From contig VCMS01000109.1 of assembly GCA_022539475.1 (NCBI GenBank), positions 62,001-126,000 of the forward strand: 64,000 nt of DNA. The letters run 5' to 3'. The notes beneath the pieces are model-generated. The model was not told the origin of the DNA. It did no database searches and saw only the letters and a list, made by a program, of their open reading frames with translations. This DNA is from Gracilaria domingensis. Taxonomy: Eukaryota; Rhodophyta; Florideophyceae; Gracilariales; Gracilariaceae. Positions 8,416-50,895 of this stretch are shown in pieces; the first letter of the stretch is position 1; every line of letters begins with the position of its first letter. The position numbers and the translations under genes are program-made.

Positions 8416-8417
8416 AA

Positions 8418-9478: not shown

Positions 9479-9628
9479 GGCACTGCTTGTCTGCAACCTG
9501 CAAATTGCAATTTTTTAAAGTGGCAGCGCGAGGCTTGATTTGCACTTTTCGAAAAATTAGACAATTTATTTTGGCAACCCCCCGATTTGAGCCAATTTCA
9601 AAGGTTTTCCGTTCGCGCAGCTCATACC

Positions 9629-18020: not shown

Positions 18021-18877
18021 TGTGGTGCAAAACCCTCGACGGGAAAACAACAAGCCGCGTCGCGGACGAGCACCTCAGGGTGTTCAGGCCCTGCTCCCTG
18101 TGAAGGGCAGTCGAGCGGCAGAACCCTCCGATAGGGCCAACACGAGCCGGGTGTAAATCCGGGTGGCCCCGATCTGGGCGTGCAGTCGGAGGTAGAAGGG
18201 GTAGAATCGGCGTAGGTATCCGGATGGTTCCGGCGAGCCACAGCGAGTGGGGGTATCCAGCCCAACGGTATGGGACGACAAAAGATCAACAAACGAGCCG
18301 CACTGCGGAGCACTGACTCGCGATAAGCGGGAAAACTCCCGAGACAAATAAAACAAACCTACAATGTAGGGCAGAGTAGCGAAAGCCGTAAGACGGAAAT
18401 GAAAACAATAAAATAGATAAGAAAAGTGCCGTGACGACGGATTAGTACTCCTCAGGGACGGAGGTTGGTTGATCAGCCCGGAATTGCGGCGGTATTCCCC
18501 AGGATGGGGCTGGTGACCGTGCGCAAGCGGCAAGAAGATCAGAGCCAAAGGCCTCGTTGAGGTTTACTTCCCGTACAGTGGCGGCAAGTGCCGCCACTTA
18601 TATACGGCACTTGAAAATATCAATTAAAATATCTAACTATCCGGCGCTGCCGGCCAATACACTACAGGTGTGCAACCGTGGCAGGCTTGCCACGGCGCAC
18701 CCGCTATCGGGCCAACTTGGCACACGTGTGCAGAAATACTACCCTTCCTAGGCATAACCCAAAATAGGGCACTACCCCAGTAGCCTCTCATAACCTGAGG
18801 TGTCGAAGCCGATGACGGATCAACAAACTATGAAAAGCACCTCGGTGCATCCCCACAAAAGGGCGTTTTGCTCTACA
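18021..18877 (-). repeat. 3' LTR of element C
   Basis: 857 bp, matching 28938-29794 base for base except one position seen. Many short hairpins are visible. The accessory gene begins just outside it. Confidence 0.97.
18598..18605 (-). promoter_or_regulatory. TATA box of element C LTR (3' copy)
   Basis: TATATAAG on the minus strand, ~275 bp from the U3 end. It lies in a hairpin-rich stretch (CAAGTGCCGCCACTT nearby). The promoter copy that drives gag-pol is the equivalent at 29515-29522. Confidence 0.6.
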
Positions 18878-18892
18878 TCTCCCCCTTCTCAG
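18878..18892 (-). promoter_or_regulatory. 3' polypurine tract of element C
   Basis: CTGAGAAGGGGGAGA on the minus strand, abutting the LTR. An identical 15-mer occurs at 20858-20872, so the accessory gene lies between two identical tracts. Confidence 0.8.
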
Positions 18893-18937
18893 GCTGAGAC
18901 ACCGACTCCGTCGGCTCGATACGCCTCGCGATGGAGG

Positions 18938-18945
18938 TATATAAG
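18938..18945 (+). promoter_or_regulatory. TATA box for the antisense accessory gene of C
   Basis: TATATAAG exactly 60 bp from the inner LTR edge. Element E has TATAAATA at the same distance (51044-51051) and D has a decayed GTAAATA (39960-39966). The ATG at 18931 overlaps this box, so translation more likely starts at the conserved ATG at 19039. Confidence 0.6.
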
Positions 18946-19038
18946 GAAGTCTCCCAAGACGGGTCTGCCGAGAACTGTTCGGAGCCACCAACACCTCCGG
19001 TGTCAGTAGCGAACCTCGTCATCTCGAGCCCCTCCGCG

Positions 19039-20730
19039 ATGTCCAACGCACCGAACGGCCCTCCGTCCTCGACGGCACGCATGCAAGTATCGAACCCGCC
19101 GTTCCGGTCTGTTCCTCTCCCGCAGTCGGCGGCTGCCTCCCAGCCGGGTTCTTCCGGACAAGATCACGCTCCAGCTCAGGCCGGTCCCGCGCCCGTGTGG
19201 GATTGGTTCAACGCCGAGATGCCAGCTACGCTGGGTGGATGGCCTACCGCAGGCGCGTTACGCATCCGGGATCCGCACCGGCACAGTTTCCTTTTTGCCC
19301 AGGCTCCCTGGTTTGACGCCGAAGCCGTTCGGGATACGGAGCTCGTCGACTCGTACGCTGTCGACGGTCAACTCCCTGGTGGGCTTCCTGCTGACGTTAC
19401 CCGTTCATGGGACTGGATCCCCCGCGTTGCGGTTATACCGAGCTGCCTGTTTGTAGGTCGAAACGAGACGAGACAATTCGCTCGCAATGAGATGGCCCGC
19501 ATTGGGTACGCGCGACACTTCCGAGCTCCGAACGAACATCCGGTGCCGGCACAGTACCAGTACGATGTGGCACGTTACCGAACTTTCGGCGAGGTCGGCT
19601 ACGGCGACCATCTGGCCAACGCGTTGGACGAAATTGACCGATATTCGGATACCGTTCAGCCGCAGCAGGAGTTGATCCTGTGGGCGCGGCCGATTCTTCG
19701 CGCCGAGTTCCGGTTCCTTCGCCGTCCTGGACGGTCTCAATTTCATGAAGGCCTCCGCTTCGAGAGGAAATGGCGTTCCCGCTTCGGGGTACTGGTGCCG
19801 TACCAGTGCACGGAGGTGGAACGCATTGCGCGTCACTCCCATACTGGGCGATACCTGCCGCTGCCGTCATTCTGGCCTGCGGTCGAAGTCCCACGAGGGT
19901 GTCACGTAGAGCTACCGCCCTGCCTAACTTACATAGGCTCGTACTTCATGAATGATCCGCCTCGCGGCCTGTGGAGCATCCTGGCAACAGAATGGACCGT
20001 CCGCGTTGCGGCTTTCCTCCTCATCGAGGCATATGACTCGTACCGAGTTTGGTTCATCCCGGAACTCATCCGGCAAGCGATCCGAGCGTTGGATTTCTCC
20101 GAAGTGCTCGGCTCGGTCCGCACTGCGCGCGAAGCCACCGCGTTGGTGGACGTCATTGACCAGATTGACTGGAATGAGGTGCCTGCTAGTCAGGTTTCCG
20201 ACGGGGTCCGTCGGCAGTCGGACCGTTCTCCCGGACGGAACGTCAACGCCGGCGACTTCGTATACTTTGACCCATGGATTTGGGAGGTAATTGGTCCCGC
20301 TGAGGCGGCTGGTCGCCGCCGAGAGGAGCGATATATCCCAGAAGGGCACCCGCGTGGGTTCGTATACGTCGACGATGACGGTGATGACCCTGCAGAGGGA
20401 GGAAGTCCCATGGATGAGGGGAGCCCAGTGGGGGTTGCCTCGGAGCCCGACGCTACGGGAGATGACGACGAAGTCGTGATCGTTGACCCGCCCGCTGTAG
20501 CGGCTCCCGCTCAGACCGGCCCGTGGGCTCAGGATGTAGCATCCGCCGTGGGCGGCAGTTCTTCTCTCACTCCGCGAGCGGCGGTCATTCGCGACTTCCT
20601 TCGAGGCGTGGGAGTGGCCGTTCCCGATACGGTGACCGACGAGTCGGAGTTGCAGGCAATAGCGGCACAGCGCTTCTCCGGGGCTCCCGGTAGTGGGGGC
20701 ACCCCAGGTGCTGGACCGTCCGGCGCGTAA
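19039..20730 (+). CDS. Antisense accessory protein of element C (563 aa), unknown
   Basis: Encoded opposite to gag-pol and convergent with pol. The start is the ATG giving MSNAPNGPPSS, which aligns with MS- starts in D (MSGTN) and E (MSESN); the frame is open back to an ATG at 18931. It has a low-complexity Ser/Pro/Ala N-terminus, a conserved core of about 330 residues, an acidic linker and a Gly/Ser/Pro tail. Blocks shared with D and E include APWF, LPGGLP, YRTFGEV.YGD.LA, RPILRAEFR, RFERK.RSR, VELPPCL.YIGS, RVAAFLL.EA, FDRSPGR-like and GDFVYFDPW. No known domain, signal peptide or membrane span is recognised. Its conservation across three families that differ elsewhere implies a selected role. 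Confidence 0.85.
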   Translation: MSNAPNGPPSSTARMQVSNPPFRSVPLPQSAAASQPGSSGQDHAPAQAGPAPVWDWFNAEMPATLGGWPTAGALRIRDPHRHSFLFAQAPWFDAEAVRDTELVDSYAVDGQLPGGLPADVTRSWDWIPRVAVIPSCLFVGRNETRQFARNEMARIGYARHFRAPNEHPVPAQYQYDVARYRTFGEVGYGDHLANALDEIDRYSDTVQPQQELILWARPILRAEFRFLRRPGRSQFHEGLRFERKWRSRFGVLVPYQCTEVERIARHSHTGRYLPLPSFWPAVEVPRGCHVELPPCLTYIGSYFMNDPPRGLWSILATEWTVRVAAFLLIEAYDSYRVWFIPELIRQAIRALDFSEVLGSVRTAREATALVDVIDQIDWNEVPASQVSDGVRRQSDRSPGRNVNAGDFVYFDPWIWEVIGPAEAAGRRREERYIPEGHPRGFVYVDDDGDDPAEGGSPMDEGSPVGVASEPDATGDDDEVVIVDPPAVAAPAQTGPWAQDVASAVGGSSSLTPRAAVIRDFLRGVGVAVPDTVTDESELQAIAAQRFSGAPGSGGTPGAGPSGA

Positions 20731-20857
20731 TTCCCCGGCTCGCGATCCCCGACGGGCTGTAGTAGTCCGTAGTAGACCCTGATGATGAGGGGCGAACTCA
20801 ATAGTTAGAGGTAAACTTCACCAGCCTTGCTGGCTTGGCCCACATTTTTCTTCCTGT

Positions 20858-20872
20858 TCTCCCCCTTCTCAG
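20858..20872 (-). promoter_or_regulatory. Second, identical polypurine tract of element C
   Basis: An exact copy of the 3' tract, placed between the ends of pol and the accessory gene. Shorter related tracts lie in pol at 22579-22590 and 25783-25794. It could prime extra plus-strand DNA synthesis. Confidence 0.45.
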
Positions 20873-20881
20873 TGGGCAATA

Positions 20882-21216
20882 CCTCGTTTGAGGCTGTTGC
20901 GAATGGCCCACAAGAGAGGGGTAACTTTTCCGCACAAGCGGCTGTAGCGATAAAACTTCTTAGTCTTCCTTCCAGTGTCCTGGCTTCTTCTCCTTCTTCT
21001 TAGGCTTCTTTCTTCTTTATCTTCTTCTCCACTGTAAGTGGCTTCCGCATTTCGCGGCATGTTTGTTCAGCGAAAAGCTGTCCGCTTAGAGCGGCCTGGT
21101 CCGCCTGAGGCGGCTAAGTGATCTCGAGTTAACTTCAAGTTGCATCCGCTTGACGCGGCATATTCTTGCGTAATGCAATACTGTCCGCATGAGGCGGCAT
21201 ATTCCGTCTGGGACGG
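20882..21216. repeat. Array of ~13-nt palindromes between accessory gene and pol
   Basis: At least ten perfect mini-hairpins with 4-5 bp arms and 3-5 nt loops: CCTCGTTTGAGG (20882), CCGCACAAGCGG (20930), CCACTGTAAGTGG (21029), CCGCATTTCGCGG (21045), CAGCGAAAAGCTG (21068), CCGCTTAGAGCGG (21082), CCGCCTGAGGCGG (21101), CCGCTTGACGCGG (21146), TTGCGTAATGCAA (21166), CCGCATGAGGCGG (21185), CCGTCTGGGACGG (21204). A CTT-rich stretch lies within it (about 20975-21030). It sits where the two convergent transcripts would end. Confidence 0.8.
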
Positions 21217-21241
21217 CTGTGCTCAATAGAGACGTGGGTGG

Positions 21242-24200
21242 TCAACCCACTTGGGCCTTGTCCAGCGTAGCCGGTATCGGTGTCCGTGTGCGACGGTGGT
21301 ACTGCAAGACCTTCGAGCGAGGCAAGTGCTCAATGGGCTCGTGCGTATCCTCTGAAGAGGCGTAGCCGTACCAACGGACTCGATACAGTAGTTCCCCGTC
21401 AGGGGCGTAGCCGTGACTTATCAGACGGTCAATGACATACTCCTCATCGAGGACCTTCCGCGCAGGATGCGGCTTTGTCGATGTATCCTCTCTCGAGGTG
21501 TCGTTGTTACCTCTCCCGTCGTGGGCTTCATTGGTTACTTTCGGCTTCCGTCCTGACGGCAAGACATCCTGTACGCCAGGCGAAAGCCATTTTGACCATG
21601 GTGTTTCCATGTTATTCCGGCTCCCAGAGTTCTGGCTTTCCTTCCCGTATTGTCGGGCTGTTACCGAGCTTCGGTGTTCTCGAATAGCGAGCTTCCGGCG
21701 TTCCGGCAAGATCTCCCGAAGTGAGGGTGAACGGTCCGCAATGCGGTGTGCCAGCGAGTGGTGCCGTGGCACGTGCCGAGGCAACGCCTTGCCAAGCATT
21801 GCTGGCGGTGGGGCCTGCGCCGTTGCACGGCTGTGCGTTGCCGATTCAAATTCGGAATTTCCGTTTCCGGCGGCCGCAAGCCTTACAGCGGGCACGTGCC
21901 CGGCCCGTGTGTTGTCACCCTCCACTGGAGGCGGATCGCCGGCGAAGCCAGACACTTGGCGCAGCGTGCGCGCGTGTGCAGCGTTGGGCTGCTGCCCACC
22001 TACTGTGGCATGTCGGCCTGCTGTTACGGCGGTTGCCTCCGTGTTTTCAACGGCTTCATCACTCGATGCTTCAATAAAATCTCCCGAAATCGGGTCTGCC
22101 GTAACAACACGGTCTTTCTGGACAGGCTTCTTTTCCGGTCTTCCGGCTTCTCTTGACGCGAGTGCGCTGCCGCTGCCGGGCTCCGACTGCGGCGGGCATG
22201 TACTTTCCGCATTCGACGTGGCTGCTGCGGTGGTTACCACCCTCTTTTCCGGCGTACCGGTCTCACGCTGCACAGCTGGGGCAGGCTCTTGTCCTTCCGT
22301 CTGTGACGGCCGTACAGTGCTATCCGCGGGCGAAGCGGCGACTTCTGCAGCAGCTACATCCTGGTGTTCTTCCGGTTCTCCGGCTTCGTGCTCCACCAAA
22401 GTGGTGCGTTCCTCTTTAGGCTTCCGCGATGACTGCGCGTTTCTCGCTTCTTTCCGAATCTGCGGCTCTACGTCGCGCGTCCGCGTGCTTTCACCACGAC
22501 TTGCGTGCGGCCCGGAGGCCTGCAAAGGCACTTCCGTCGACGACGGCGACAACGAGATCGAGCGACTTACCTCCTCCTCCCCCTCCTCAGTTGGAGCGTC
22601 GGGGGTGGTGGTGAGTATCCCCTGAGGGGCCAGTATCCGCGTGTGGACATGTGCGGCGTTCGAGACTGGCGGGTTAGCTTCCGGCTTTGCCGGCAAATCA
22701 GCAAGTCCGCGGCTAGGATGCGGCAGGACTGGCAACGAAGCGCGCTCTCCCGCTGTCGCGGCTTGGTCCACAGTAGGCGTAGCGCTGTCCGGCGTTTCCG
22801 GTTGCTTTTCCTGACGAACAGGCTGTGGCGCAGGCGTTACGCGATCGCGCGAAAAACGCTCGTGTTCACCCTCAATATCGAGGACAACCGTTGTATCGGT
22901 GATAGAAATAACCCTGTAGGGGCCGTCCGCGATAGGAGAGAGCTTATGCCTCTTCTCCTTTTCCGGGTTATAGTATTCCTTCCGTAGGAAGGCGTAGTTA
23001 CCTTCCCTGATCTGAGGGGCATCCCTGCGCATTCGTGCGTCGAAATTCCGCTTGTACGCGGCTTGTGCCTTATCGATGTTTTGCCTAACTGTAGGAATGA
23101 TGTTCTTAAGCCAGGCCTTCCAGGCGTCTCTGTGTAGACGAGGCGAGGGGAACTTATCCAAAGTTGGCTGTGGCTCGATAGCCACCGAAGGTGGAACGCG
23201 TGATAGCACAAGCTCGAACGGCGAGATCTGAGTAGTGCGATGAACCTGCGTATTATAGGCATATGTCACCGCATCGGTGTATTGATCCCACTCCGACGGA
23301 TGTTCGGCAACGAATGTCCGTAATGCATTGAGCATTGTGCGGTTAAAACGTTCAACCTGCCCATTACTCTGGGGGTGGTATGTTGTCGTAAACCAGTTTT
23401 GGATCCGCAAGATGCGGCAAACGTCCTGAAAGAACTTAGCCGTAAACTGCGGTCCATTGTCCGATAACAGGTCAATCGGCGGTCCGTAGACAAAAACCCA
23501 GTGTGTAACGAAAGCTTGGGCGACCGCACTGGCGGTAACCTTCGTCAAAGGCACAGTCCGTACCAGTTTAGAAAAACGGTCGGTGATCACAAGTAGAAAC
23601 CGGTTTCCCCGGCGAGTGCGGATAAACTCACCGAGCAAGTCAATTGCCACGAATTCAAGTGGAGCCCTAGCAGGGAAGAGTACCAACTTCTTGGAGTACT
23701 TCCGCAGTTTGACGCGGTTCTTCGCGCAGTCAGAACATCCACGAACAGTGGCATACGCGTCGAAAGCCATTGCTGGCCAGTAAAAGTCCTTCCGTAAGGT
23801 GTAGTACAACTTCCTGCCACCAGGGTGGGCTGACAACTTCGCGTAGTGCGACAAATGCAGTACTCGTGACTGAAGTGAGTGCGGAACCACAATCTGTGGC
23901 CTGTTTCCGACGGTTCGGATTAGAAATCCTTGGTCGTTCTCGACGAAAGGCAACTGTGCTCCACCGTTTAGGCGACTACGAATCTCCGTACAAAAACGGT
24001 CGGTGTGCTGCTCCCGGATGAGTTCCTCCGGCTTGATCGGTACGAAAGAGCCCGGTTCGGGTTGCGTGTCTGACACGGCTAAAACAGCATCGTAGATGTC
24101 CCATCCTTCCGATTCTTCATCGGCATCGCTCGAGCCGTCTTCCACGAGGAAGCACGGTATCTCCAGATCATCGACTGGCGCAGCTTCAGCCGCTGTTTCC

Positions 24201-26772
24201 AAGCGGGACAGTGCATCAGCCTGAGTGTTCAGGAGTCCTTTCTTGTAACGGATTTCGAAATCGAATTCCGACAAGCGAAGTCTCCACCGCATCAAGCGGC
24301 CAGATGGCTCTGCTATAGAGAGTAGCCAGCGTAATGCCGAATGATCGGTATGAACAATGAAGCGGGTCCCCATAAGATAGGGCCGCAGTGTCTGTAACGC
24401 CCAGACAACTGCCAAGCACTCCTTCTCGGATACCGAGTAATTCCTCTCGTGAACGTTGAGGCTTCTTGACCAATACCCAATTGGCAATCGCTCGCCATCA
24501 TTGGTGGTCTGGAATAGGGCACAGCAGACTTGGTAGTCGCTCGCATCCGTATCTACTGCATATGGCAAACCAGCCCTAGGCAGGGATAAAACAGGTGACG
24601 ATGTCACCGCGTCCACGAGCGACGAGAAAGCCGCGACCTTGTGGTCGTCGAATTCTTCCAGATCGACTGGCTGTCCTTTGCGAAGAAGCTCGTTCAGGGG
24701 TGCAGCGATATCCGCGAAGTTCGGAATGAAGCGGCGATACACATTGCACAAGCCGAGAAAAGATCGGAGTTCCGTCTGCGTCCTCGGATGCTTAGCCTCT
24801 TTGAGGGATTTCACGCGTACTTCGTCAATCGAAAGCCGTCCCGGACGGATAACATGGCCGAGATACCGGACGGTTTCGGTAAAGAACTCACACTTCTTGA
24901 GCTTGAGCGTAATGCCTGCATCGCGTAGGACTCGCATCACATCCCGTACGTGGGTCAAGTGCTCATCCAGGTTGCTGGAGTAGACAATGATGTCATCCAG
25001 GTATACCAGGCAAGTCTTCCACTTAAAGCGGGCTAGCAAAATATCCACAGCTCGTTGAAAAGTGGCTGGCGCGTTCGTTAACCCAAAGGGCATCCGATTG
25101 AATCGGTACAATCCTTCATGACAAACGAAGGCTGTCTTGTCACGATCCTCAGCCCTCACGGGAACTTGCCAATAGCCCCAATTCGCGTCTAGGGTTGTGA
25201 ACACTTTCGCGTCGCCCACTGAATCGATGCATTCATCCATTCGTGGGATAGGATACACATCCTTGACCGTAGCCGCGTTTAGCTTGCGGTAATCGATGCA
25301 AAATCGCCAAGACCCATCAGCTTTGGGCGCGAGCACCACCGGCGATGCCCAAGGTGACTGAGCCGGCTCGATAACTCCAGCGCGGAGCATCTTCTCAACT
25401 TGAGCTTTCTCCTCCTGCCGAGCTGTCGGTCCTGCCCTGTAAGGGTGCTGTGAAATGGGCCGAGTATTCGGTAGCAAATCAATCCGATGTTCGGTAATAC
25501 CAATCTTACCCAGTGTGCCATCCCACATGGGCGTGAACTCCTCAAGCATGTGCCGCAATTTATCGCGGTGAGTCTCTGGGACATGTTCAAGATCCAGAGA
25601 CTCCAGTTCCTGTACTGCCTTATCCTTCGTGTCAGCAGCACTCAGGTCCGTATCATTACTGTCCGACGAGGTCGGCATTGCCTCCTTCGACAGGCTGCGG
25701 TTATTTGCATCCGACGAAGTTGGCGTAGCATCTTCCGACGAACTGTTCGGTCCAGTCGTTTCGGAATTGTTCCGTTCCGCCTCCCCCTCCTCAGCTTCGA
25801 GGATTCCGAGAACCTCGGCAATAGAAACCTGAGTAGGCACTATAGCCGCAGGATGCGGAAGCAACGAACCAATAACTTGGCTCCTAACCAACCGTTGAGA
25901 AAAACGGCTGAAGTTCGCAACCAGCACCTGAAAAGGCTTCTCGGGTTCGACGAAAACAATCCCATTAGCGAGGGCAAGCTGATGCTTCTCCTGTAACGCA
26001 GGCAACGGTTGTACCGTTTGTAAGCCACATTGTGGGGAGGTCACAGTAACCCAGACCTGTGATTCAGGCGGGATGGAAATGGGCCGAGCTACTCGGAGCT
26101 TTGTAGACTTCCGTTCATCGGCTGTAGGCTTCTGCGCAGCAGACAATGGCACTTGCTTCTTCAGAGCCCTTCTAAGGGGTCGCCGAACGATCGGTACAGT
26201 AGTCCCATCTTCCATCTCGATGGTTCGCTTCCGCGGTCGAATTGCATCGACGAAGCGGTCACAGAAGTCGCAGCCGAGGATAACCGGCGCAGCGAGTTGC
26301 TTGCAAACCAAGAAATCGAGCTTCGCCACGTAGCGGCCAAGCCTGACAAGCAGGTCTATCACTCCCACAGTTGAAAGTGGCCGATTATTCGCATCCGCTA
26401 TATCAATCTGCGGCGCCGCACGAACGCGAGACCGCAAGTGCGGCGGAATCATAGACTCAACCAAAAAGTTTGGCCCAGCTCCTGTATCGAGCACGGACAA
26501 CTGCCGAACCATGTACTGGTCGGAAACACCTAGGTCGGCGTAAACTTTGTAGTTACGTTTCGCCATGACCAGGACTCTATCCGGGAACCGGCTGTTATTA
26601 GACCGTATCCACGGGCGATGCAAGACACCAAGGTGCTCAGAGTCCACGTCTGTAGTGGCCAGTTTCCTCGAAAGGATTGTGACCGGGGAGCGAGGCTTCT
26701 CAGCCTCAGGCGCACTAAACCCCGTCGCTGGGGGCGCCTCTCCATTGCTGGAGGCTCCCTTGCTCAGTTTTT
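21242..26772 (-). CDS. Pol of element C: protease, RT, RNase H, integrase, chromodomain
   Basis: More than 1800 residues, entered by a -1 frameshift at the end of gag; the -1 frame is open from the gag stop through GTG 26647. Counting from 26647: protease VLDTGAG at ~54; RT with FCIDYRKLNAATVKD and YLDD at ~549-552; RNase H from DTDASDYQ at ~698; integrase with a C-X2-C (GCSDCAKN), AIDLLGEF (~1000), SDNGPQF (~1060) and NGQVERFNR. A linker of ~500 residues rich in Pro, Ala, Glu and Thr follows, then a chromodomain at ~1731-1785 (EEYVIDRLISHG...YRVRWYGYASSEDTHEPIEHL). The linker is unusually long for Ty3 Pol. No inactivating change was seen. Confidence 0.95.
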
Positions 26773-28773
26773 CTGAGCGTCGCCGCCAATCTGCGGAGGT
26801 TGCGATTCCGCAGGGGCGGCTACAGTTCCACCATTCGATGGCACCGTTTCCTGGTTTCCAGGCTGAGTCTCCGCCTTCGCACGAAGGTACGATTTGTCGG
26901 GAACACGTTCCCGCTCGGCGGGCGTCAACGACTCATACTGAGGCACTATCTTCGCCATATCCCGTATGGGCATTAAGCAATTCGGAGCGATGTGCCCTGG
27001 CCTGTAACAGGTATGACAAATAAGGTGACGAAGAAGATCCGCGTTGGGCGGCCGGCGCTCCTGTCGAGGAGGATACGGGTCCCTCCATCCAGGGCGTTGG
27101 CTTCGATATCCGCCAGAGTGCGGCACGGGCAATGCCGGGACTTGACGTCCGGCGTACAGAGCGGGGTCTGCATCCACTGTAGACTGCTCCGTCGTCGACG
27201 GCAATTCCGAACTCGGCATTGAACCATCGTCCTGTAACAGGTGCAGGTTATCATAACCCCCTTGAACAGAACCTCGCGAATGAGGCAGTGAGGAGTCTCG
27301 GCCTTCTACATGAAGGAGTCGGCGCGTGCGCGCCTTGATGCCAGTGCGTGCTCGAGCTGCATCTCCCTCCGCTTGGGCAAATTGAACGAGTTCCAGATAG
27401 GTAATCCGGCGTTTGTTCTCCCGATAATGGGCTACCAACGTCCGAATTGATCGGTCCAGTCCATCAACAAACATCGTACACCGCTCGGCTGCGGAGAACA
27501 CGTTGCCACATCTGTGGAAAGCCTTATTGAGGCGGGTCGAATAAACGGTTTCCGACTCTTCGGCTCCTTGCTTCGTGTCTCGTAGCGCGAGTATGGCACC
27601 TTGTATCGCATTGCCTGTCGCGTAAGAGCGCAGGAGATATTGTACCGCTTCCGGCCAGCACGTAACTCCTCCTTCGGAGGCGCGAGACGACCCACGAACC
27701 GAATTGAATTGATCTTCGGCTACACCCGTCAAAAAGTACGGCAGCGCGATGTAGGCCTGTGCCTCACTCATCCGAAGTACATCGGCTTCCGCTACGAAGC
27801 GGCTAAGAAAATCCAAGACCAGAATTGGATCTTCCCCAGAGAACTTGTGGGGCTTTAGCGTGAGCTCCATTTGTCGGAGATGATTTCGCACTTTGCCAGT
27901 CCCACGTGGGGTCCTCTGTGGCGTCGTGTCATCAAGCCGATAATATCGGTAAGATAGCAGCTTCCGATACAGTAAGTTTGTCGGCTTCAACTCCTTCAAT
28001 CCGAGGTGTCTCCGTCCTTTCGTACGGCCTCGTGCAACGCCAGAAGTGGCTTCAGTAGCCCGCGAACGGGATGCACGATAGCGAGAGCGCTCTTCCGCGC
28101 TGTCCGAAGAGTCGGTAGACGATCCCTTTTTGGGGCCCTCCTCATCAGAAGAGGATGAAGAAGACGAGTCAGACTCAACCTTGACCTTCTTCTTTGCCGG
28201 ACGGTCCCGGGAACGGCGCGAGTGCTGAGAACCCTCAGAAACCGGGGCTCCCGGCGCAACAGCATCAGATACGATGATTTGCTCGACCGTCTCCAGACGG
28301 GTAGCCAGGCGGTCCAGGCGTGCGGCAGCCTGCTCGTGCAGACCAGCCGACACCTGTCGGTGTTCCATAATCTGGTTGACATCAGACCGTAAAACACGGA
28401 CGTCGCTCGAAACATCCCGGACACCGGCTTCATCGAGCCGTTGTTGGAGCTTCGTAATATCCCGGATGAGGCCCACTTGGGAGTTCTGCAGGATGCGAAC
28501 CTGAGCCTCTAATTCACGGAGGGTATACTCGTCGGACCGCGACGACATAACGTCAACCGCTGCGGCGGCATCAGCCGCAGGTGCGGTTTCAGTTGGCCCA
28601 CGAGTGGGTGGGGTCCCGTTATCAGAACGGCGGCCCCGGGAAGCCGGTTTCGGGTCGCCATTGCCTGGGACCTCCAGTGCGTCCTTCGGCAACGGAGGCA
28701 AACTTGCCGGCAACCCGGACGAACCGGGCACAGAAGCGGCACGTGGCGCGCCACTCCTGCGACGGGACGACAT
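26764..28773 (-). CDS. Gag of element C (669 aa)
   Basis: Structural polyprotein starting at ATG 28773 (MSSRRRSGAP). It has a Pro/Ser/Ala-rich N-terminus, coiled-coil-like heptads (~85-190, LRELEAQVRILQNSQVGL), a Ser/Asp/Arg-rich acidic-basic region (~195-245), then GRRHLGLKELKPTNLLYRKL and the retrotransposon Gag core (KFSGEDPILVLDFLSRFV ... QAYIALPYFLTG). A zinc knuckle CHTCYRPGHIAPNC of C-X2-C-X4-H-X4-C type lies near residue 584. It is about twice the length of B's Gag. Intact; homologues in D and E are broken. Confidence 0.93.
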   Translation of the reverse strand: MSSRRRSGAPRAASVPGSSGLPASLPPLPKDALEVPGNGDPKPASRGRRSDNGTPPTRGPTETAPAADAAAAVDVMSSRSDEYTLRELEAQVRILQNSQVGLIRDITKLQQRLDEAGVRDVSSDVRVLRSDVNQIMEHRQVSAGLHEQAAARLDRLATRLETVEQIIVSDAVAPGAPVSEGSQHSRRSRDRPAKKKVKVESDSSSSSSSDEEGPKKGSSTDSSDSAEERSRYRASRSRATEATSGVARGRTKGRRHLGLKELKPTNLLYRKLLSYRYYRLDDTTPQRTPRGTGKVRNHLRQMELTLKPHKFSGEDPILVLDFLSRFVAEADVLRMSEAQAYIALPYFLTGVAEDQFNSVRGSSRASEGGVTCWPEAVQYLLRSYATGNAIQGAILALRDTKQGAEESETVYSTRLNKAFHRCGNVFSAAERCTMFVDGLDRSIRTLVAHYRENKRRITYLELVQFAQAEGDAARARTGIKARTRRLLHVEGRDSSLPHSRGSVQGGYDNLHLLQDDGSMPSSELPSTTEQSTVDADPALYAGRQVPALPVPHSGGYRSQRPGWRDPYPPRQERRPPNADLLRHLICHTCYRPGHIAPNCLMPIRDMAKIVPQYESLTPAERERVPDKSYLRAKAETQPGNQETVPSNGGTVAAPAESQPPQIGGDAQKN
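26767..26773 (-). promoter_or_regulatory. Candidate -1 frameshift site at the gag stop of C
   Basis: Gag ends CAG AAA AAC TGA. The same 12 bases end gag in element D (47610-47621). Pol lies in the -1 frame and is open at this point. The heptamer G-AAA-AAC is not a textbook slippery sequence, because the first base breaks the XXX triplet, but A-site slippage from AAC to AAA is plausible. Confidence 0.5.
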
Positions 28774-28916
28774 CGTTCACCGACACAGTCGGCCAATGGG
28801 CAACCAAAACAACTTCCGAAAACGGACAATGAGAAAACCGTAAGAACGGATATTCCCGACTATCTGGGCTCCAAACAAACGAACCAACTCCAACGAACGT
28901 TGGCCAATTAAGCCGA

Positions 28917-28934
28917 TTCTAAGTCGGGAGACCA
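28917..28934 (-). promoter_or_regulatory. Primer-binding site of element C
   Basis: TGGTCTCCCGACTTAGAA, three nucleotides inside the 5' LTR. The same 18-mer is in D (49901-49918), and with one change in E (61744-61761). Its complement ends GGGAGACCA, like some eukaryotic tyrosine tRNAs; that tRNA identity is an inference from memory. Confidence 0.75.
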
Positions 28935-28937
28935 GTT

Positions 28938-29794
28938 TGTGGTGCAAAACCCTCGACGGGAAAACAACAAGCCGCGTCGCGGACGAGCACCTCAGGGTGT
29001 TCAGGCCCTGCTCCCTGTGAAGGGCAGTCGAGCGGCAGAACCCTCCGATAGGGCCAACACGAGCCGGGTGTAAATCCGGGTGGCCCCGATCTGGGCGTGC
29101 AGTCGGAGGTAGAAGGGGTAGAATCGGCGTAGGTATCCGGATGGTTCCGGCGAGCCACAGCGAGTGGGGGTATCCAGCCCAACGGTATGGGACGACAAAA
29201 GATCAACAAACGAGCCGCACTGCGGAGCACTGACTCGCGATAAGCGGGAAAACTCCCGAGACAAATAAAACAAACCTACAATGTAGGGCAGAGTAGCGAA
29301 AGCCGTAAGACGGAAATGAAAACAATAAAATAGATAAGAAAAGTGCCGTGACGACGGATTAGTACTCCTCAGGGACGGAGGTTGGTTGATCAGCCCGGAA
29401 TTGCGGCGGTATTCCCCAGGATGGGGCTGGTGACCGTGCGCAAGCGGCAAGAAGATCAGAGCCAAAGGCCTCGTTGAGGTTTACTTCCCGTACAGTGGCG
29501 GCAAGTGCCGCCACTTATATACGGCACTTGAAAATATCAATTAAAATATCTAACTATCCGGCGCTGCCGGCCAATACACTACAGGTGTGCAACCGTGGCA
29601 GGCTTGCCACGGCGCACCCGCTATCGGGCCAACTTGGCACACGTGTGCAGAAATACTACCCTTCCTAGGCATAACCCAAAATAGGGCACTACCCCAGTAG
29701 CCTCTCATAACCTGAGGTGTCGAAGCCGATGACGGATCAATAAACTATGAAAAGCACCTCGGTGCATCCCCACAAAAGGGCGTTTTGCTCTACA
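28938..29794 (-). repeat. 5' LTR of element C
   Basis: 857 bp, TGTGGTGC...CTCTACA on the plus strand, followed by target duplication GAAGC. It carries the gag-pol promoter with TATATAAG (minus strand) at 29515-29522. Confidence 0.97.
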
Positions 29795-38923: not shown

Positions 38924-39897
38924 TCTGGGGCAAACTCGGAAGAGTGAAACCCACCAGACTGTCCGAAGGTCCGCTCTCGTAAGAGATGGCAGACCAGTGA
39001 CAGAGCCCTCTGTACCACCGTAACTCGGTTGTAAGGCCGAAGTGGCAACTGGCTATACCTACAGAGGTGCTAGGCCACGTCGTGAGGAAACGATGAGAAA
39101 CTCCAGAGATGGGGTGGCATCGGCAACGATGAAACACGACCAACGACAGGTGTAGTCCCGAGAGGGAAAGCAACAGAAAACAACAACCAAACAACACCCA
39201 CACGCGACGGGTAGGGCCTCCTCGGCACTGTGCCCGGAGCGGGGCGAGATCCTCCAACGGTAATGCACGGGTTTCCTTAAACACGGCAAAACTCTATACA
39301 GAGTCGGATCACTTCGTAATCTAGTTCTATACCTCCTCGGTACGACCCTCAGGTCCCGACGTCAACGACAGATGTTCCTCAAAGGTACCGAGAGGGTAGG
39401 ACCACCGTAACCAGACGTGGCTATACTCGCGAGAGTGATAACCCACGTAGGCGGTTGACGCCAGAGCCTCACTCGTGTAGAGTCCACTCAGGAGAGCGCT
39501 ACTCGACAAAGAGTTCACTTAGAAGTGCTCGGGTTGACTTTACAAAGGTGCTCGCGACGACGAGGTCGAGCTCACCTAAGTAGGTCTAAACTAACTATGT
39601 ACACGTGGTGCACACCCGCAGGGGTCCGTACACGTGGCTAGCCCAGTGTCAGGCACCTCAGGTGCACTACCTATTGTCCCGTAATATGCACACACACGGT
39701 GGTGTAGTACACGCGTCCACCTAGCGGTATTGGCCAGCAATGGCAACCCTGATTACAGGTAACTGTGGGAAAGCCATTCCAAAAGTAACCGCCAAAATTG
39801 GGTCCAACTCATAACTCTTCGAGTGCATCCTCGTATCACTCCCCTGAGTATATGAGGCGCATCATCCTGATAACCACGCAAATTGCGTTGCTCTACA
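38924..39897 (-). repeat. 3' LTR of element D
   Basis: 974 bp. The outer end reads TCTGGGGC where the other copy has TGTGGGGC, so the terminal dinucleotide is mutated. The inner end is GCTCTACA. Confidence 0.95.
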
Positions 39898-39912
39898 TCT
39901 CCCCCTCCTTAG
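39898..39912 (-). promoter_or_regulatory. Polypurine tract of element D
   Basis: CTAAGGAGGGGGAGA on the minus strand, next to the LTR. The 12-mer CCCCCTCCTTAG (plus strand) recurs within pol at 43491-43502 and 46626-46637. Confidence 0.75.
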
Positions 39913-39976
39913 AGCCGAGAACGACTTCGAGGCTGAAGTTTTGTGCGAAACGTAAGTACGTAAATACGTCACAGTC

Positions 39977-41830
39977 ATGAGCGGTACCAACTCCTCGGTT
40001 TCTATACCTCGCAAGCGCGATACACACTCAAGCGAACAGAGTATTCAAGTATCCGAACTCGATCACAGTACATCATCTGTCATTCCGATGAACCCGAATC
40101 AGTTTCCTCATCACCCGACGGGTCAAGCGAGCGCGTCGAACTACCCTCAGCCGGGTTCTGCGACGGCTCCACTGCCTCAGTCTCAACCGATGGTCCCGGT
40201 GAACGTTCCGTTATGGAATTCAGCGCAAGCGATGCCGCTGATGGCGAACCAAGCTGGTTGGATATCGAGGGAATCTCTCGCAGTACGCGATCCACTCCGT
40301 GATGGGTTTGCGTTCAGCCGTGCACCGTGGTTTCATCCGGTAGCTGTTAACGATGTCACTCTCCTGGAGTCGTATGCCGAAAACGGCTTCCTACCGGGCG
40401 GTCTGCCGTTAGCGGTAGTGCAATCCCCAGAATGGAAAGTTCGTATAGCGATCGACCCGATGCTCCTCCGGTACGATACCCGCGAGGGTGAGAACCTGAA
40501 CACCGCGCGCGCGGAACACGCGAAGTTGGCGTACAAGAGACTCAGTCGAGTGCAACTCGAGCACCTGGTTCCACCGTCATATGGGTTCGATACTCCGTTC
40601 TACCGTACTTTCGGTGAAGTCCGATATGGAGACAATTTGGCGGCGTTCGACCATGCGCGGTACGCTGGCGATGGCCCGACCACATCGAGGTTGATGTTGT
40701 GCTGGAATCGGCCCATACTCCGAGCGGAGTTCCGATATCTTCGCAAGAACGCTTCCCAGGGTGGGTTCGTCAACCGCATTCGGTTTGAGCGGAAAGCTCG
40801 TTCCCGTCATGGGTATCTGATTCCGTATCCGAATATCGAGACCGAGAGGTACAGACCGCAGGCCCTTGTTGGACGGTTCCCTCCTCTACCAGATTGGTGG
40901 CGTGATGTGGAGGTACCCAAAAGGTGTTTTGTAGAGCTGCCTCCGTGCTTGAGTTACATCGGCTCCCGATTGATCAACGATCCGCGTTCAGGATGGTGGG
41001 GTCCCTTAGCCGGCGAGTGGGTGGCACGCGTAGCAGCGTTTCTCCTCTGGGAGGCTTAGGACAACTACCGTGTTTGGTATATTCCGCCGATGCTTCACAG
41101 CATTATCCGCTCGCTGGATTTGCACACTCCCTTGGGGTCCGAAGAGAACGTGGATGAGATCCATTACATCTTGTATGTTATCGATGGAATCGATTGGGAA
41201 ACGGTGCCCCGTTCGCAACGCGGGAAAGGTCCCCGTCGTCACTTCGACCGCTCACCCGGTAGGAGACATCCCACCGCAGGAGATTTCGTGTATTACGACC
41301 CATGGGAGGGTACGATGACGACTAGCGCGTATGCCGAGTGGGCAGCGAACCAGCCACGGTCGATTCCAGACAGTCACCCCGTTGGGTTCATGTTCAGTGA
41401 CAACTGGGTCGCCCCAGTGGATCTGGATGATCCGAACATGGATACTGGTGGAGAGGCGGCGGGAGCACTCGTCGAGATGGACCAGAAGTTGGTGAACGAC
41501 CTACCGGCGGCGAATCAGGTGTTGCACGCCAGCGGCGGGGTACCCCAGGCTCCTGTGGGTTGGAATGTTCCGACTCAAGCGAGTGATCCGGTGGTGGGTC
41601 CGGCCCCTGTAGCGGCTACCGTTCCTTCGGTCCTTCCGGCCCCGACAGCTCCGGTCGCTCCGGGAGATTCTCCGGCGACCATGGCGATGTTGCGCGCCAG
41701 TCTCCAGAACGCTGGAATTATCGTGCCCGATCATCTCACCACTATGGCAGGGATACTGGCTTACGCCATTCCGCACCCTTCGCAGGGTCCCTCCGGTAGC
41801 GGCGGTGCCGGTCCCTCATCGGGGGTGTAA
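39977..41830 (+). pseudogene. Antisense accessory gene of element D, one nonsense codon
   Basis: 617 codons in one frame from ATG 39977 (MSGTNSSVS) to 41830, broken only by TAG at 41057-41059, where C has Tyr (EAYDSYRVW against EA-stop-DNYRVW). It shares with C and E the blocks APWFHP, LLESYAENGFLPGGLP, FYRTFGEVRYGDNLA, RPILRAEFRYLR, RFERKARSRHG, RCFVELPPCLSYIGS, FDRSPGR and GDFVYYDPWEG. The Gly/Ser/Pro tail is also shared. Upstream, the position equivalent to the TATA box of C and E reads GTAAATA. No known domain. Readthrough or a recent mutation could explain the single stop. Confidence 0.8.
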
Positions 41831-42216
41831 GATGACCAGCAGGGCTGGAGGACTTGGTCCTTAGTATAAGGTAGAAACAGTAAAACCATCTAGTGGTAAC
41901 TTTCCCTTCACCCTTTTGCCTGTTCTTCACGAACTTGATCGATCTTCGATTACTTCTTCACTCACACTGTGTTCAAGTGTACTTCACTTCCCTGGTGCTT
42001 CACTTCTTTGGCGCTTCTTCTACTCTAACCTTTTTAAATCGGTACAACCGGCATTTCGGTATGCTCTTCTTTCTTTCTTCTCACTTCCTCTAGTTCAGTC
42101 TCAACCGCTTCATTGGTCTTCTTCCTTCATTCATCTCCCACACAGAAGGGGTCAACTCTCCATTCTGAGTCTTCCGCATCGCGGTATAGTTGAAAGCTCC
42201 TCACCGGGAACGGTTC

Positions 42217-45200
42217 TTATCCCACCTGAGCTTGGTCCAGGTTGGACGGCAAGGCTGACCGAGTGGGACGGTGGTATGAAACGATCTTCGACCTAGGTAT
42301 GTGCTCGACCGGCTCCATGGTGTCCTCCTCGGCGGAGTAGCCATACCATCGCACTTGGTACAGTACCGTCCCATCGGGGTCTACAACATGACGTACGATA
42401 CGTTCGATCACGTATTCCTGCGGGTACACCTCGGTGTTTGACTGCTCTCCTTCACCCATTGTGGTTTCGTACCTTCGAGGGTGGCGAGGTGGTGGCCGGC
42501 TAACCTCTAGAGGGGTTCCTCTTGGACTTAACCAGTCACGACTCACTAGGAGTTCCTCGCTGCGCGACAACTACAACTTACGCCAGGAGCGTCCAATCTT
42601 CAATCTGAAAGGTTTTTCTTGAAGTACTCTCCTTCTTGAGTTTGACGAGCTTCGGCTCGTCTTGGTTGGGCTTCCGACCGTCCAACGGTAGCTTCGGGAT
42701 TCTGAGCTCCCTCTTGCTATCCAGAAGGATCGTCCGTGCGACGGAGAACGGGCAGGGTCTCGCTCGTGCGCCATGGAGGCGGATTGACCAATCACGGTGC
42801 ATATCGCGGCCTTCTGGTTGGCCAGGCGATGGCACGTGTGAGCCACGAGTTACCCTAACAGGTGTCCGTTCGCCTACGGTTGGCGACCGTACATCGTGCA
42901 CCGTTCACGTGTGGTACTCGCGCACGCGACTTACTGTCAGCAGTTCCCCGCGTCGGCGGTGCTTTCAGTACGTCACCACGTCACACAACGTGTTACTCTC
43001 CATTTGGGTGTGTCATGAGTCGTCTGCCACGCGGCGTGGGTGCACCATCCACGGTTTCCAAACTCGTACTTTGTACTTCACCTTTCCAAGGTTCTTTTCC
43101 CAAATAATACGCGGGTAAGTACGACTTCTCGTTTCCTCATACCACGGCGTGGTTAACACCGGTCGGTAACATTGAGCTGATCTACCGCTTGCCGTTCTGC
43201 GTTCTCCGGAAAGCCCGGGTCTACAGATACTGTCTTCTCCGCTCTGCGGGTGGTGAACTCACTCAGTTGTGGTGTTCCCGACGGGGTTACGTTATCCACA
43301 GCGGTATGTACCCCCTGGGTGGGTCGTGTCGTTTCCTGCGCATTGCTCAACGAACTCGACGGAGTATCACCACGAGGTACAGCGCCTCGGCGCACCACAA
43401 CGCTATCGGTAGAGACCGCGAGATTGGTTGCGGTACCTTGCGACACAGTGTGACCGTGCGACGCCGGTGTAACGGGTTCCGTACTTTCCCCCCCCTCCTT
43501 AGGCCGTGGCACGGGAGCCACGACGTCCGGTGGGGGGTCAACTCTAGTTGAGTTTTCCTCTTCGTCTCCCGCAACGGGTTGTGCTACCCGCGTGGGTGAT
43601 TCTGACTTCGGTAGATCCGATAAGCCGCGATCAGGGCGGAGAGTCGCAGGGCGCGAAGATACGACCTGTTCGTCCCCTGTAGCTTCACCCAGTTGGGTGT
43701 TAACGTGAACGTAGGGTGGTGGGGCCAGCGCGACACGGTCTAACGATATCCGCTCGTAGAGATTATTGTTATCCAATACTACGGTATCTTCCGTGACGGA
43801 AATAACCCTGTAGGGTCCTTCTGCGATAGGCGAGAGCTTGTGGCGGCGTTCCTTCTCCGGATTATAGTATTCTTTGCGGAGAAATACCATATCGTCTGGT
43901 TTGACCTTTGGTAATGGGGTCTTAACCTTCGCATCGAAGTTGCGCTTATAAGCGGCCTGCGCCTTATCCATAGCTGTGCGAGCGACCGGTACCATTTTGG
44001 TTAACCAATCCTTCCAAGCGTTCCTGTATAACCCAACAGACGGGTACGTAGAAAGCGTTTCTTGAGCCTCGATTGCAACCGGTGGTGGCACTCTTGACAA
44101 TACCAACTCAAAAGGTGCTAGCTTCGTTACCCGGTGGACTTGGGTGCTGTACGCATACGTAATAGCGTCCGTATACAAATCCCAATCCTTAGGATGATCT
44201 GCCACATAAGATCTTAATGCATTTAGCATTGTTCGGTTAAATCGTTCTACCTGACCATTTGTTTGGGGGTGGTAGGTGGTCGTAAATAGATTCTTGACAC
44301 TGAAGATCCGAGAGACCTCCTTGAAAAACTTCGACGTGAACTGTGAACCGTTATCTGATAATAGATGAGCCGGTGGACCGTACACAAAGACCCAGTGGGT
44401 GACAAAAGCTTGTGCAACCACGGTGGCCGTAATCCGTTTCAGCGGGACTGTCCGTACCAACTTAGAGAACCGATCGGTGATAACCAGAAGGTATCGATTA
44501 CCTCTTGCGGTTCTGATCAATTCACCGAAGATATCGATAGCGATAAACTCCAAAGGAGACCGTGCTGGGAACAGCGTTAACTTCTTCGCGTACTTACGAA
44601 GTTTCACGTTATTCATTAGCGCACTCGGTGCAAGAGCGTCGTACTGCGTAGCAGTCCAATGCCATTGACGGCCAGTAAAAATCCCTACGCAGGGTCAAGT
44701 ATAGTTTTCGACCTCCTGGGTGGGCTCCTACCTTCACATAGTGTGTCATGACCAACACACGGTTTTGCAGCGAGTATGGGACCACAATTTGGGTATACGC
44801 TTCGACCAACCTAACCAGGTACCCCTGATCGTTAACCTGAAAAGGTATACGATCTCCTCCATTGAGACGAGCGCGAATTCGCGTACAAAACTCATCCGTT
44901 TGCTGTTCTCGGATCATCTCCTCGGGAGTGATGGGTACAAAAGATCCAGTCAAGGGATCCAACTTCTCAGAAGTGAGCAGGATGTCGTCACAGATGTCAT
45001 CCGACAAAGATTCGACCCAACCTGCTTGTTCTTCCACCATAAAGCATGGTATGTCCAGACCGTCAACTGGTGCCGCTTCTGCATTTGTTCCCAAGCGGGA
45101 GAGTGCATCTGCCTGCAGATTCAACGTTCCTTTTTTGTACGTAACTGTGAAATCGAACTCCGATAACCTCAAGCGCCAACGCATCAAGCGTCCTGATGGT

Positions 45201-49677: not shown

Positions 49678-49900
49678 ACTGAAAACCAGTAAGCAATCTG
49701 ATCCAGATGATCCAGTTAAACTCGTACACGAGTCTCCAAAGAACAAGAAAACTCAATAAACCTTCTCGGTAAACCACCACGTCAGCGGTTCACGTTCAAA
49801 AGTTGTCAACCTCCAAAACTCTAAAGAGTCCCCTGATCGTTGTCAGAAAACGGTGATCCGTCAACAATCAAGTCAATTCCACAACAGTGACCTAAAACGG

Positions 49901-49918
49901 TTCTAAGTCGGGAGACCA
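49901..49918 (-). promoter_or_regulatory. Primer-binding site of element D
   Basis: Identical 18-mer to that of C, again three nucleotides from the LTR. Confidence 0.75.
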
Positions 49919-49921
49919 CTT

Positions 49922-50895
49922 TGTGGGGCAAACTCGGAAGAGTGAAACCCACCAGACTGTCCGAAGGTCCGCTCTCGTGAGAGATGGCAGACCAGTGACA
50001 GAGCCCTCTGTACCACCGTAACTCGGTTGTAAGGCCGAAGTGGCAACTGGCTATACCTACAGAGGTGCTAGGCCACGTTGTGAGGAAACGATGAGAAACT
50101 CCAGAGATGGGGTGGCATCGGCAACGATGAAACACGACCAACGACAGGTGTAGTCCCGAGAGGGAAAGCAACAGAAAACAACAACCAAACAACACCCACA
50201 CGCGACGGGTAGGGCCTCCTCGGCACTGTGCCCGGAGCGGGGCGAGATCCTCCAACGGTAATGCACGGGTTTCCGTAAACACGGCAGAACTCTATACAGA
50301 GTCGGATCACTTTGTAATCTAGTCCTATACCTCCTCGGTACGACCCTCAGGTCCCGACGTCAACGACAGATGTTCCTCAAAGGTACCGAGAGGGTAGGAC
50401 CACCGTAACCAGACGTGGCTATACTCGCGAGAGTGATAACCCACGTAGGCGGTTGACGCCAGAGCCTCACTCGTGTAGAGTCCACTCAGGAGAGCGCTAC
50501 TCGACAAAGAGTTCACTTAGAAGTGCTCGGGTTGACTTTACAAAGGTGCTCGCGACGACGAGGTCGAGCTCACCTAAGTAGGTCTAAGCTAACTATGTAC
50601 ACGTGGTGCACACCCGCAGTGGTCCGTACACGTGGCTAGCCCAGTGTCAGGCACCTCAGGTGCACTACCTATTGTCCCGTAATATGCAAACACACGGTGG
50701 TGTAGTACACGCGTCCACCTAGCGGTATTGGCCAGCAATGGCAACCCTGATTACAGGTAACTGTGGGAAAGCCATTCCAAAAGTAACCGCCAAAATTGGG
50801 TCCAACTCATAACTCTTCGAGTGCATCCTCGTATCACTCCCCTGAGTATATGAGGCGCATCATCCTGATAACCACCCAAATTGCGTCGCTCTACA
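49922..50895 (-). repeat. 5' LTR of element D
   Basis: 974 bp, TGTGGGGC...GCTCTACA, followed by duplicated ATAAC and the remainder of E's LTR. Confidence 0.96.

What the first reader, a model, noticed from the sequence alone, without database searches (positions are those of the whole stretch)
18938..20730. Conserved antisense gene in a family of Ty3/chromodomain elements (ambisense retrotransposons)
Elements C, D (39977-41830) and E (51224-53799) each carry a 560-620 codon gene opposite to gag-pol, tail to tail with pol and ending near it. The proteins share more than ten ordered blocks (APWF, LPGGLP, YRTFGEV, RAEFR, VELPPCL.YIG, FDRSPGR, GDFVY) although LTRs and surrounding DNA are not alignable by eye between C, D and E. 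I recognise no known domain. Antisense ORFs are known in a few plant Ty3 elements, but this protein is unfamiliar to me. It could be a host-interaction, silencing-suppression or assembly factor; that is speculation.
Basis: partly seen in the sequence, partly recalled or inferred. Interest (0 to 1): 0.88.

Follow-up and report, generated by a model that had tools for sequence, protein, structure and literature searches.

The report
Antisense accessory gene in algal retrotransposons
A family of jumping genetic elements in what looks like a red seaweed carries, on its opposite strand, a second gene for an otherwise unknown protein, probably with its own start signal, and close sister elements spread without it.

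Summary
Element C (18021-29794, TSD GAAGC, LTRs 1 difference in 857) carries an antisense ORF at 18931-20730 between pol and the 3' LTR. Relatives sit in the same place in D, in the relic E and in a fourth family, F; the D and E copies in this window are broken. At about 40% protein identity the frame is kept, with dN/dS 0.20 (0.15-0.27) in C and 0.15-0.41 in D, so it is a protein gene. Refinement: the true start is probably Met37 (19039); the codons before it hold a TATA box, and a TATA-like box lies 61-63 bp inside the LTR end in all four families, so the gene probably has its own antisense promoter. New: among 73 C-type pol segments, 48 have the gene or remains of it, 12 have an unrelated non-coding module plus a different U3, 13 are unresolved. 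The gene is thus an exchangeable cassette not needed in cis. No Pfam, NCBIfam, PDB or fold match; the C and F proteins almost lack lysine. Antisense ORFs at this place are known in plant Retand/Grande/RIRE2 and fungal Boty elements, so this is a new protein family in a new host, of a known kind. Function is inferred only.

The parts
18021..29794 (-). Element C, complete LTR retrotransposon (gag-pol on the minus strand); TSD GAAGC at 18016-18020 and 29795-29799
   Evidence: self-BLAST; boundaries read
18021..18877 (-). 3' LTR of C (TGTGG...TACA on + strand); 99.88% identical to the 5' LTR
28938..29794 (-). 5' LTR of C; primer-binding-site-like TGGTCTCCCGACTT just inside it
   Evidence: PBS reading is by eye
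18597..18604 (-). TATATAAG on the gag-pol strand inside the LTR (same at 29514-29521): probable sense promoter; U3/R boundary inferred near 18568
   Evidence: homology between C and gene-less sister elements resumes at 18568
18878..18892 (-). Polypurine tract next to the 3' LTR
   Evidence: motif recognised by eye
18938..18945 (+). TATATAAG, TATA box proposed for the antisense gene, from the 61st base inside the LTR end
18931..20730 (+). Antisense ORF of C, 599 codons from its first ATG
19039..20730 (+). Probable true coding sequence (Met37 onward, 563 aa)
   Evidence: codons before it look unconstrained; start aligned with those of P0004 and P0006 and with D M38
20731..21241 (.). Spacer between the two convergent genes; second copy of the 15-base PPT sequence at 20858-20872
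21242..26647 (-). pol of C (RT, RNase H, integrase, chromodomain at about 21293-21439; a DTGA protease-like motif by eye only)
26764..28773 (-). gag-like ORF of C (669 aa, no Pfam hit)
38924..50895 (-). Element D, LTRs 38924-39897 and 49922-50895, TSD ATAAC; inserted inside the 3' LTR of E
   Evidence: ends and TSD read by eye
39977..41830 (+). Antisense gene of D, broken in this copy by TAG at 41057-41059; likely start 40088; TATA-like GTAAATAC at 39960-39967
51224..53799 (+). Relic of the antisense gene of E, interrupted by an inverted LTR-like repeat (51613-52378); TATAAATA at 51044-51051

Best explanation
This is a genuine accessory gene of a group of chromodomain-bearing Ty3 LTR retrotransposons in what is probably a gracilarialean red alga. 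It is encoded antisense between pol and the 3' LTR. Shown by sequence: it is a protein gene kept by selection; it lies in the same place in four element families; elements with nearly identical pol exist in which the gene, the PPT and the U3 are together replaced by something else. Inferred: an mRNA starts about 30 bp after a TATA box located 61-63 bp inside the LTR end, translation starts at Met37, and transcription converges on gag-pol. Such an mRNA lacks PBS, LTRs and the gag-pol strand, so it cannot be a genome template and can only make protein (or dsRNA with the genomic RNA). Inferred and less certain: the product is a trans-acting, non-virion regulator (S/P-rich arm, conserved lysine-poor core, acidic tail, C-terminal helical hairpin) that tunes expression or silencing of its own elements, like the antisense proteins proposed for plant Retand/Grande elements and HBZ of HTLV-1 in position, not in descent. 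Sister elements without the gene would either be helped in trans or not need it because they carry another U3.
For: Frame: dN/dS over codons 37-599 is 0.20 (bootstrap 0.15-0.27) between C subgroups and 0.14 within the main group; codons 121-452 give 0.14 and 0.10; D against four diverged copies 0.19, 0.41, 0.15, 0.41; F 0.35. In wrong frames (120 of the 264 subgroup pairs) 1.38-2.35, except the antisense frame that shares wobble positions (0.27), which has 14 stops. 53 of 73 scored C matches hold no internal stop. Families C, D, E, F share 39-48% protein identity. Promoter: codons 1-37 vary evenly over codon positions (18/24/20 variable columns) against 65/54/134 in codons 121-470 (chi-square p 0.005, columns taken as independent); dN/dS of codons 1-36 is 0.57-0.97 with intervals including 1; TATA-like boxes start at base 61-63 in C, D, E, F. 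Start: P0004 begins MDPN and P0006 MNPN, as D M38 does. Cassette: L078, L083, L085; 12 of 73 pol segments have the other module. No transmembrane stretch stands out (best 19-residue hydropathy 1.5 in C).
Against: No RNA evidence was available, so transcription, start site and protein are unproven. P0001 (G. chorda) is annotated from an upstream ATG and stays similar to C there (...DGSA-NCSEP...), so the upstream start may be used, or that DNA may be conserved as promoter or leader. D's TATA-like box is weak (GTAAATAC), and the most AT-rich 8-mer of its 130 bp lies elsewhere. The regulatory role rests on position, charge layout and analogy; no DNA-binding domain was found and the models are poor (pLDDT 43 and 47). 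Gene-less elements have spread (17 of 42 module matches are full length at 99% or more), which argues against an essential role in cis. E gives dN/dS 0.61 (0.33-1.25). The C copies used for dN/dS were chosen among the best protein matches, which biases dN downward.
Confidence: 0.55

Rival explanations
1. Silencing suppressor: convergent transcription makes dsRNA with the genomic RNA, and the antisense protein counters the host small-RNA or chromatin silencing that this would trigger.
For: The antisense transcript would be complementary to the 3' part of the genomic RNA (anatomy). The protein is kept by selection in C and D.
Against: No credible match to any family in Pfam. Gene-less sister copies are young too.
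Confidence: 0.2
2. Particle or envelope-like component: the protein is structural or helps assembly, nuclear import or cell-to-cell spread.
For: Same location as env in other elements (recalled); length and conservation like an integral element protein.
Against: No transmembrane-like stretch (best 19-residue hydropathy 1.5 in C; signal peptides were not tested with a tool); no zinc knuckle seen by eye; no blastp similarity to gag pieces at E 1e-3; expression from a separate antisense promoter is unusual for a structural part.
Confidence: 0.15
3. Ubiquitin-pathway adaptor: the near absence of lysine protects a factor that recruits a ubiquitin ligase to a host restriction protein, as lentiviral accessory proteins do (recalled).
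For: 1 lysine in 563 aa (C) and 0 in 681 (F) against 7.7 and 10.6 expected from base composition at the codon positions; pol of the same element has 77 in 1801. Conserved lysine deserts are frequent in ubiquitin-proteasome components (PMC10169902, start of the abstract seen in the listing).
Against: D has 9 in 580 against 13.3 expected; the eight database homologues carry 1 to 9. No adaptor motif was searched. The strand is A-poor, which explains part of it.
Confidence: 0.12
4. Passenger: a captured host gene or chance ORF with no function for the element.
For: Gene-less sister elements amplify.
Against: dN/dS 0.15-0.41 in two families, open frames at about 40% identity in C, D and F, same position and orientation, similar TATA position.
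Confidence: 0.05

Closest known systems
Antisense additional ORFs of plant Ty3 elements (aORF-3R: maize Grande gene23, rice RIRE2, Silene Retand ORF4 with TRP28/PF04195)
   Same: Between pol and 3' LTR, opposite to gag-pol, present in most copies, conserved, function unknown; in Grande an own promoter upstream of gene23 (PMC7264820, sections 5-8 read; PMC11963269, abstract and discussion read).
   Different: Retand elements are non-chromovirus and were found in Eudicotyledons and Liliopsida only (PMC11963269); here pol ends in a chromodomain, the host is probably a red alga, and the protein has no match to PF04195.
Boty of Botrytis cinerea/Sclerotinia (antisense ORF in a fungal element)
   Same: Named in PMC7264820 (section 5) as a non-plant element with an antisense ORF at this place.
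   Different: Protein not compared here: no sequence at hand.
HTLV-1 HBZ (antisense protein of a retrovirus)
   Same: Antisense gene at the 3' end; regulatory by analogy. PMC7264820 section 8 mentions the antisense promoter of HTLV; the name HBZ and its role are recalled.
   Different: HTLV's antisense promoter lies in the 3' LTR (PMC7264820); here the TATA box is outside the LTR. No sequence test was made.

Membership tests
Ty3/chromodomain LTR retrotransposon (chromovirus-like) | RT-RNase H-integrase order and a chromodomain at the C end of pol | tested here: met
   C pol: RVT_1 441-600, RT_RNaseH 695-795, H2C2 921-978, rve 996-1092, Chromo 1737-1785, each above its cut-off; rve_3 below
Ty3/chromodomain LTR retrotransposon (chromovirus-like) | LTRs, PPT, PBS, target-site duplication | tested here: met
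   LTRs 857 bp, TSD GAAGC, PPT at 18878; PPT and PBS recognised by eye
Ty3/chromodomain LTR retrotransposon (chromovirus-like) | RT tree places it among chromoviruses | not tested
   No tree was built
aORF-3R class (antisense ORF between pol and 3' LTR) | Antisense ORF at this place in most copies of the family | tested here: met
   Same layout in C, D, E, F; 48 of 73 C-type pol segments carry it or remains of it, 12 do not, 13 unresolved
aORF-3R class (antisense ORF between pol and 3' LTR) | Antisense transcript from an own promoter | not testable with these tools
   TATA box found; no RNA data
Retand TRP28 antisense protein | Match to Pfam PF04195 (Transposase_28) | tested here: not met
   No PF04195 match at the limits used (E 0.1, 1 and 0.5) in the proteins scanned
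Ubiquitin-pathway lysine-desert proteins | Lysine poverty beyond base composition | tested here: inconclusive
   Seen in C (1 against 7.7 expected) and F (0 against 10.6); weak in D (9 against 13.3)

The most novel reading that the evidence does not exclude
The antisense gene and the adjacent U3 form a matched regulator-target cassette. Each element family encodes, from its own internal antisense promoter, a lysine-poor trans-acting protein that recognises that family's U3; recombination during reverse transcription moves gene and U3 together, and elements with an unrelated U3 and no gene are a rival regulatory lineage on the same gag-pol.
Probability: 0.2. Interest if true: 0.75.

Novelty: new variant of a known kind. 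Interest (0 to 1): 0.56.

Why it matters
Reviews say that the role and origin of antisense ORFs in LTR retrotransposons are unknown (PMC7264820, PMC11963269). Here is one in a probable red alga, outside plants and fungi, in chromodomain elements, with a protein unlike those described. That suggests the arrangement arose more than once, or is old, and so is useful to the element. The genome holds a natural experiment: nearly identical pol backbones with and without the gene, with different U3s and many young copies, so its effect on transcription and copy number can be compared. Nine searches of the open-access library listed no paper whose title or abstract start reports such a gene in red algae; most subscription papers are not held, and one set of LTR elements that includes two Rhodophyta genomes (PMC8282616, passages seen) does not use the word antisense in its main text.

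Tried and rejected
Sense-strand coding as the cause of the open frame: rejected; minus frames hold 6, 14 and 16 stops, and the low dN/dS of one minus frame (0.27) is explained by shared wobble positions.

Domain identity: Pfam, NCBIfam and PDB sequence searches gave nothing credible (scattered hits at E 0.03 to 8 were ignored; the Pfam ones lie below their cut-offs). AlphaFold models from 8 and 13 sequences were poor (mean pLDDT 42.8 and 47.0); Foldseek had no match at E 0.001 or better for the second model, and the first was not searched. PHROGs, PADLOC and the prokaryote genome collection were not searched. The gag and pol pieces tested show no blastp similarity to the antisense proteins at E 1e-3.

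Relatives outside: no phage record; in viral contigs 23 stretches matched a pattern but none encodes a relative. Rfam: none in the window.

Frameshifts as decay: 10 elements were chosen by pol order. Three (L078, L083, L085) have no antisense gene there. L084 lacks 586 bp of it; L081 has one 1-bp indel. L079, L080 and L082 show many scattered 1-bp indels that look like uncorrected long-read errors (alignments seen). L077 (cut by its contig end) and L086 (only the last third matches) have 74 and 19 gap bases in the matched part; their alignments were not looked at. Frameshifts in this assembly were therefore not used as evidence.

Hairpins in the spacer: 5 against 1.9 expected in C (shuffle maximum 5), 6 against 1.5 in D (maximum 6); also high in pol (59 against 27.8); not pursued.

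Full report
WHERE THIS IS. The window is G000:C109:62001-126000 of an unnamed 77.9-Mb, 680-contig genome. No tool names the organism. The closest named homologue of the antisense protein is Gracilariopsis chorda BWQ96_10156 (65%, whole query covered) and two others are from Agarophyton chilense, so a gracilarialean red alga is my inference.

ANATOMY. Element C spans 18021-29794: LTRs 18021-18877 and 28938-29794 with 99.88% identity, TSD GAAGC, gag 26764-28773 and pol 21242-26647 on the minus strand, pol ending in a chromodomain. The plus-strand ORF 18931-20730 lies between pol and the 3' LTR, tail to tail with pol. D (38924-50895, TSD ATAAC) sits inside the 3' LTR of E: the E LTR pieces are 38129-38914 and 50897-50982, matching 61781-62657. 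A fourth family, F (L072), has a 702-codon antisense ORF, tail to tail with a pol that ends in a chromodomain-like stretch (by eye and by blastp to the C and D pol ends), and begins beside a PPT and LTR end.

COPIES. Counts are lower bounds from capped lists. With the C protein 73 places were scored, 53 of them without internal stop; with the D piece 114 matches. With the E piece 150 matches were listed, of which 19 at 61-100% are E-like and the rest, at 43-52%, D-like or F-like. The D gene in the window is broken by TAG at 41057-41059 and E is a relic; both were searched piece by piece.

A PROTEIN GENE UNDER SELECTION. In 50 C copies (30 best matches plus 20 others, of 73) third codon positions vary most (236 of 496 variable columns). 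dN/dS over codons 37-599 is 0.20 (0.15-0.27) between six diverged copies and the main group and 0.14 (0.10-0.20) within it; codons 121-452 give 0.14 and 0.10, codons 453-545 (acidic tail) 0.42 and 0.32, codons 546-599 0.26 and 0.27 (L053 left out). D against L067, L068, L069, L070 gives 0.19, 0.41, 0.15, 0.41, F against L073 0.35, E against L075 0.61 (0.33-1.25, so inconclusive). Several of these partners carry stops, which raises the ratio. In the 30 best C copies the gene has 0.08 and the end of pol 0.74, but those 30 were picked by antisense-protein score, and five of them carry a different pol tail, so this contrast should not be leaned on.

START AND PROMOTER. Codons 1-37 vary evenly by codon position (18/24/20 variable columns), and the dN/dS intervals of codons 1-36 include 1. 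They contain TATATAAG at 18938-18945. Of 50 copies 40 hold TATATAAG, 9 hold GATATAAG, and one (L053) is different there. Counted from the LTR end, TATA-like boxes start at base 61 (C TATATAAG, E TATAAATA) and 63 (D GTAAATAC, F TATTTAAG). Such AT richness at this offset in all four arose in 4 of 20,000 shuffles, but the offset was chosen after seeing the sequences, and D's box is weak. Met37 of C (MSNAPN), M38 of D (MNPNQF) and the E start at 51224 (MSESNS) resemble the starts of P0004 (MDPN) and P0006 (MNPN). Against this, P0001 is annotated from an upstream ATG and stays similar to C there (MSGYKRTSLDGSADNCSEP against MEVYKEVSQDGSAENCSEP): either the upstream start is used, or the DNA is conserved as promoter and leader (the shared YK is where C has its TATA box; the DNA of P0001 was not seen). 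A TATATAAG on the other strand in the LTR (18597-18604) is the likely gag-pol promoter. Transcription was not testable here.

THE PROTEIN. C from Met37 is 563 aa: an N-terminal arm of 88 aa, S/P-rich by eye, a core of about 325 aa, a tail of 150 aa with net charge -17, and a C-terminal pair of helices predicted with pLDDT about 80. The core has 11% arginine and 0.3% lysine. Lysines: C 1 of 563, F 0 of 681, D 9 of 580; gag 24 of 669, pol 77 of 1801. Base composition by codon position predicts 7.7, 10.6 and 13.3 for C, F and D, so the deficit is clear in C and F and weak in D. Eight database homologues were found in three searches, with 1 to 9 lysines each. No credible family, PDB or fold match was found.

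EXCHANGEABLE CASSETTE. To avoid choosing by the antisense protein, I took pol segments (73 scored, 10 with stops) and looked at the expected place of the gene, allowing 700 bases and not checking strand. The lists used were all 73 rows plus 16 further places, and 24 of the 42 rows. Result: 48 of 73 have the antisense gene or remains of it (seven of these rest and are deleted, partial or indel-bearing), 12 of 73 have another module, and 13 of 73 match neither list (one, C461, runs wholly off its contig and C83 partly; the lists are capped). The other module (L078, L083, L085; 99.3-99.6% alike; pol open frames of 1899, 1565 and 1698 codons) is about 1.27 kb, with no significant similarity to the antisense proteins tried. 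Its longest open stretch is 122 codons in L078 and 129-168 in four older copies; substitutions show no clear codon periodicity, and indels are often not multiples of three (2 of 2, 2 of 3, 37 of 45, 2 of 5). It ends in a PPT and a different U3 (by eye); identity with C resumes at window position 18568, 36 bases downstream of the start of the sense TATA box, where R should begin. That is what reverse transcription of a recombinant RNA gives: R-U5 from the 5' end, U3 from the 3' end (established retroviral mechanics, recalled). The module has 42 matches, 17 full length at 99% or more and others down to 70%, so gene-less elements include many young copies and are not new. The gene is therefore not needed in cis; help in trans from intact C elements is possible and untested.

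COMPARISON. Antisense ORFs between pol and the 3' LTR are known in plant Grande1, RIRE2, Retand, PvRetro13 and fungal Boty (PMC7264820, sections 5-8 read), and 97% of recently active Retand clusters encode TRP28 there (PMC11963269, abstract and discussion read). Those papers give no established function. The position, orientation and probable own promoter are shared; the protein, the chromodomain and the host differ. I file it as a new variant of that kind, not as a relative of TRP28.

VERDICT. The gene is real and selected (about 0.9). An own TATA promoter outside the LTR is likely (about 0.65, lowered from 0.7 on checking because of P0001). A trans-acting regulatory role is the best guess (about 0.4), with silencing suppression, a particle role and a ubiquitin role as rivals.

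Noticed in passing
G000 loci L078, L083, L085 (C14, C283, C12): C-type elements with long open pol frames but a non-coding module and another U3 in place of the antisense gene; 42 matches of the module in the genome.
   Followed up: yes
window 21440-22230 and L012, L019, L024, L025, L032: The stretch of pol before the chromodomain exists in two very different alleles (about 71% DNA identity, about 65% protein) joined to nearly identical antisense genes, a sign of recombination and fast evolution there.
   Followed up: partly
window 38129-38914, 50897-50982, 61781-62657: Element D is inserted inside the 3' LTR of element E, splitting it.
   Followed up: partly
window 51613-52378: Inverted copy of an E-type LTR (about 89-90% identical) lies within the antisense gene relic of E.
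   Followed up: no
window 20858-20872: Exact second copy of the 15-base polypurine tract between the antisense gene and pol in C; none noticed by eye at that place in D.
   Followed up: no
window 388-5965 and 7886-13463: A 5.6-kb inverted repeat (99% identical) of another retroelement; tblastn finds no relative of the antisense protein there.
   Followed up: no
L079, L080, L082: Parts of the assembly look like uncorrected long reads, with many 1-bp indels, so frameshifts in single copies are unreliable.
   Followed up: partly
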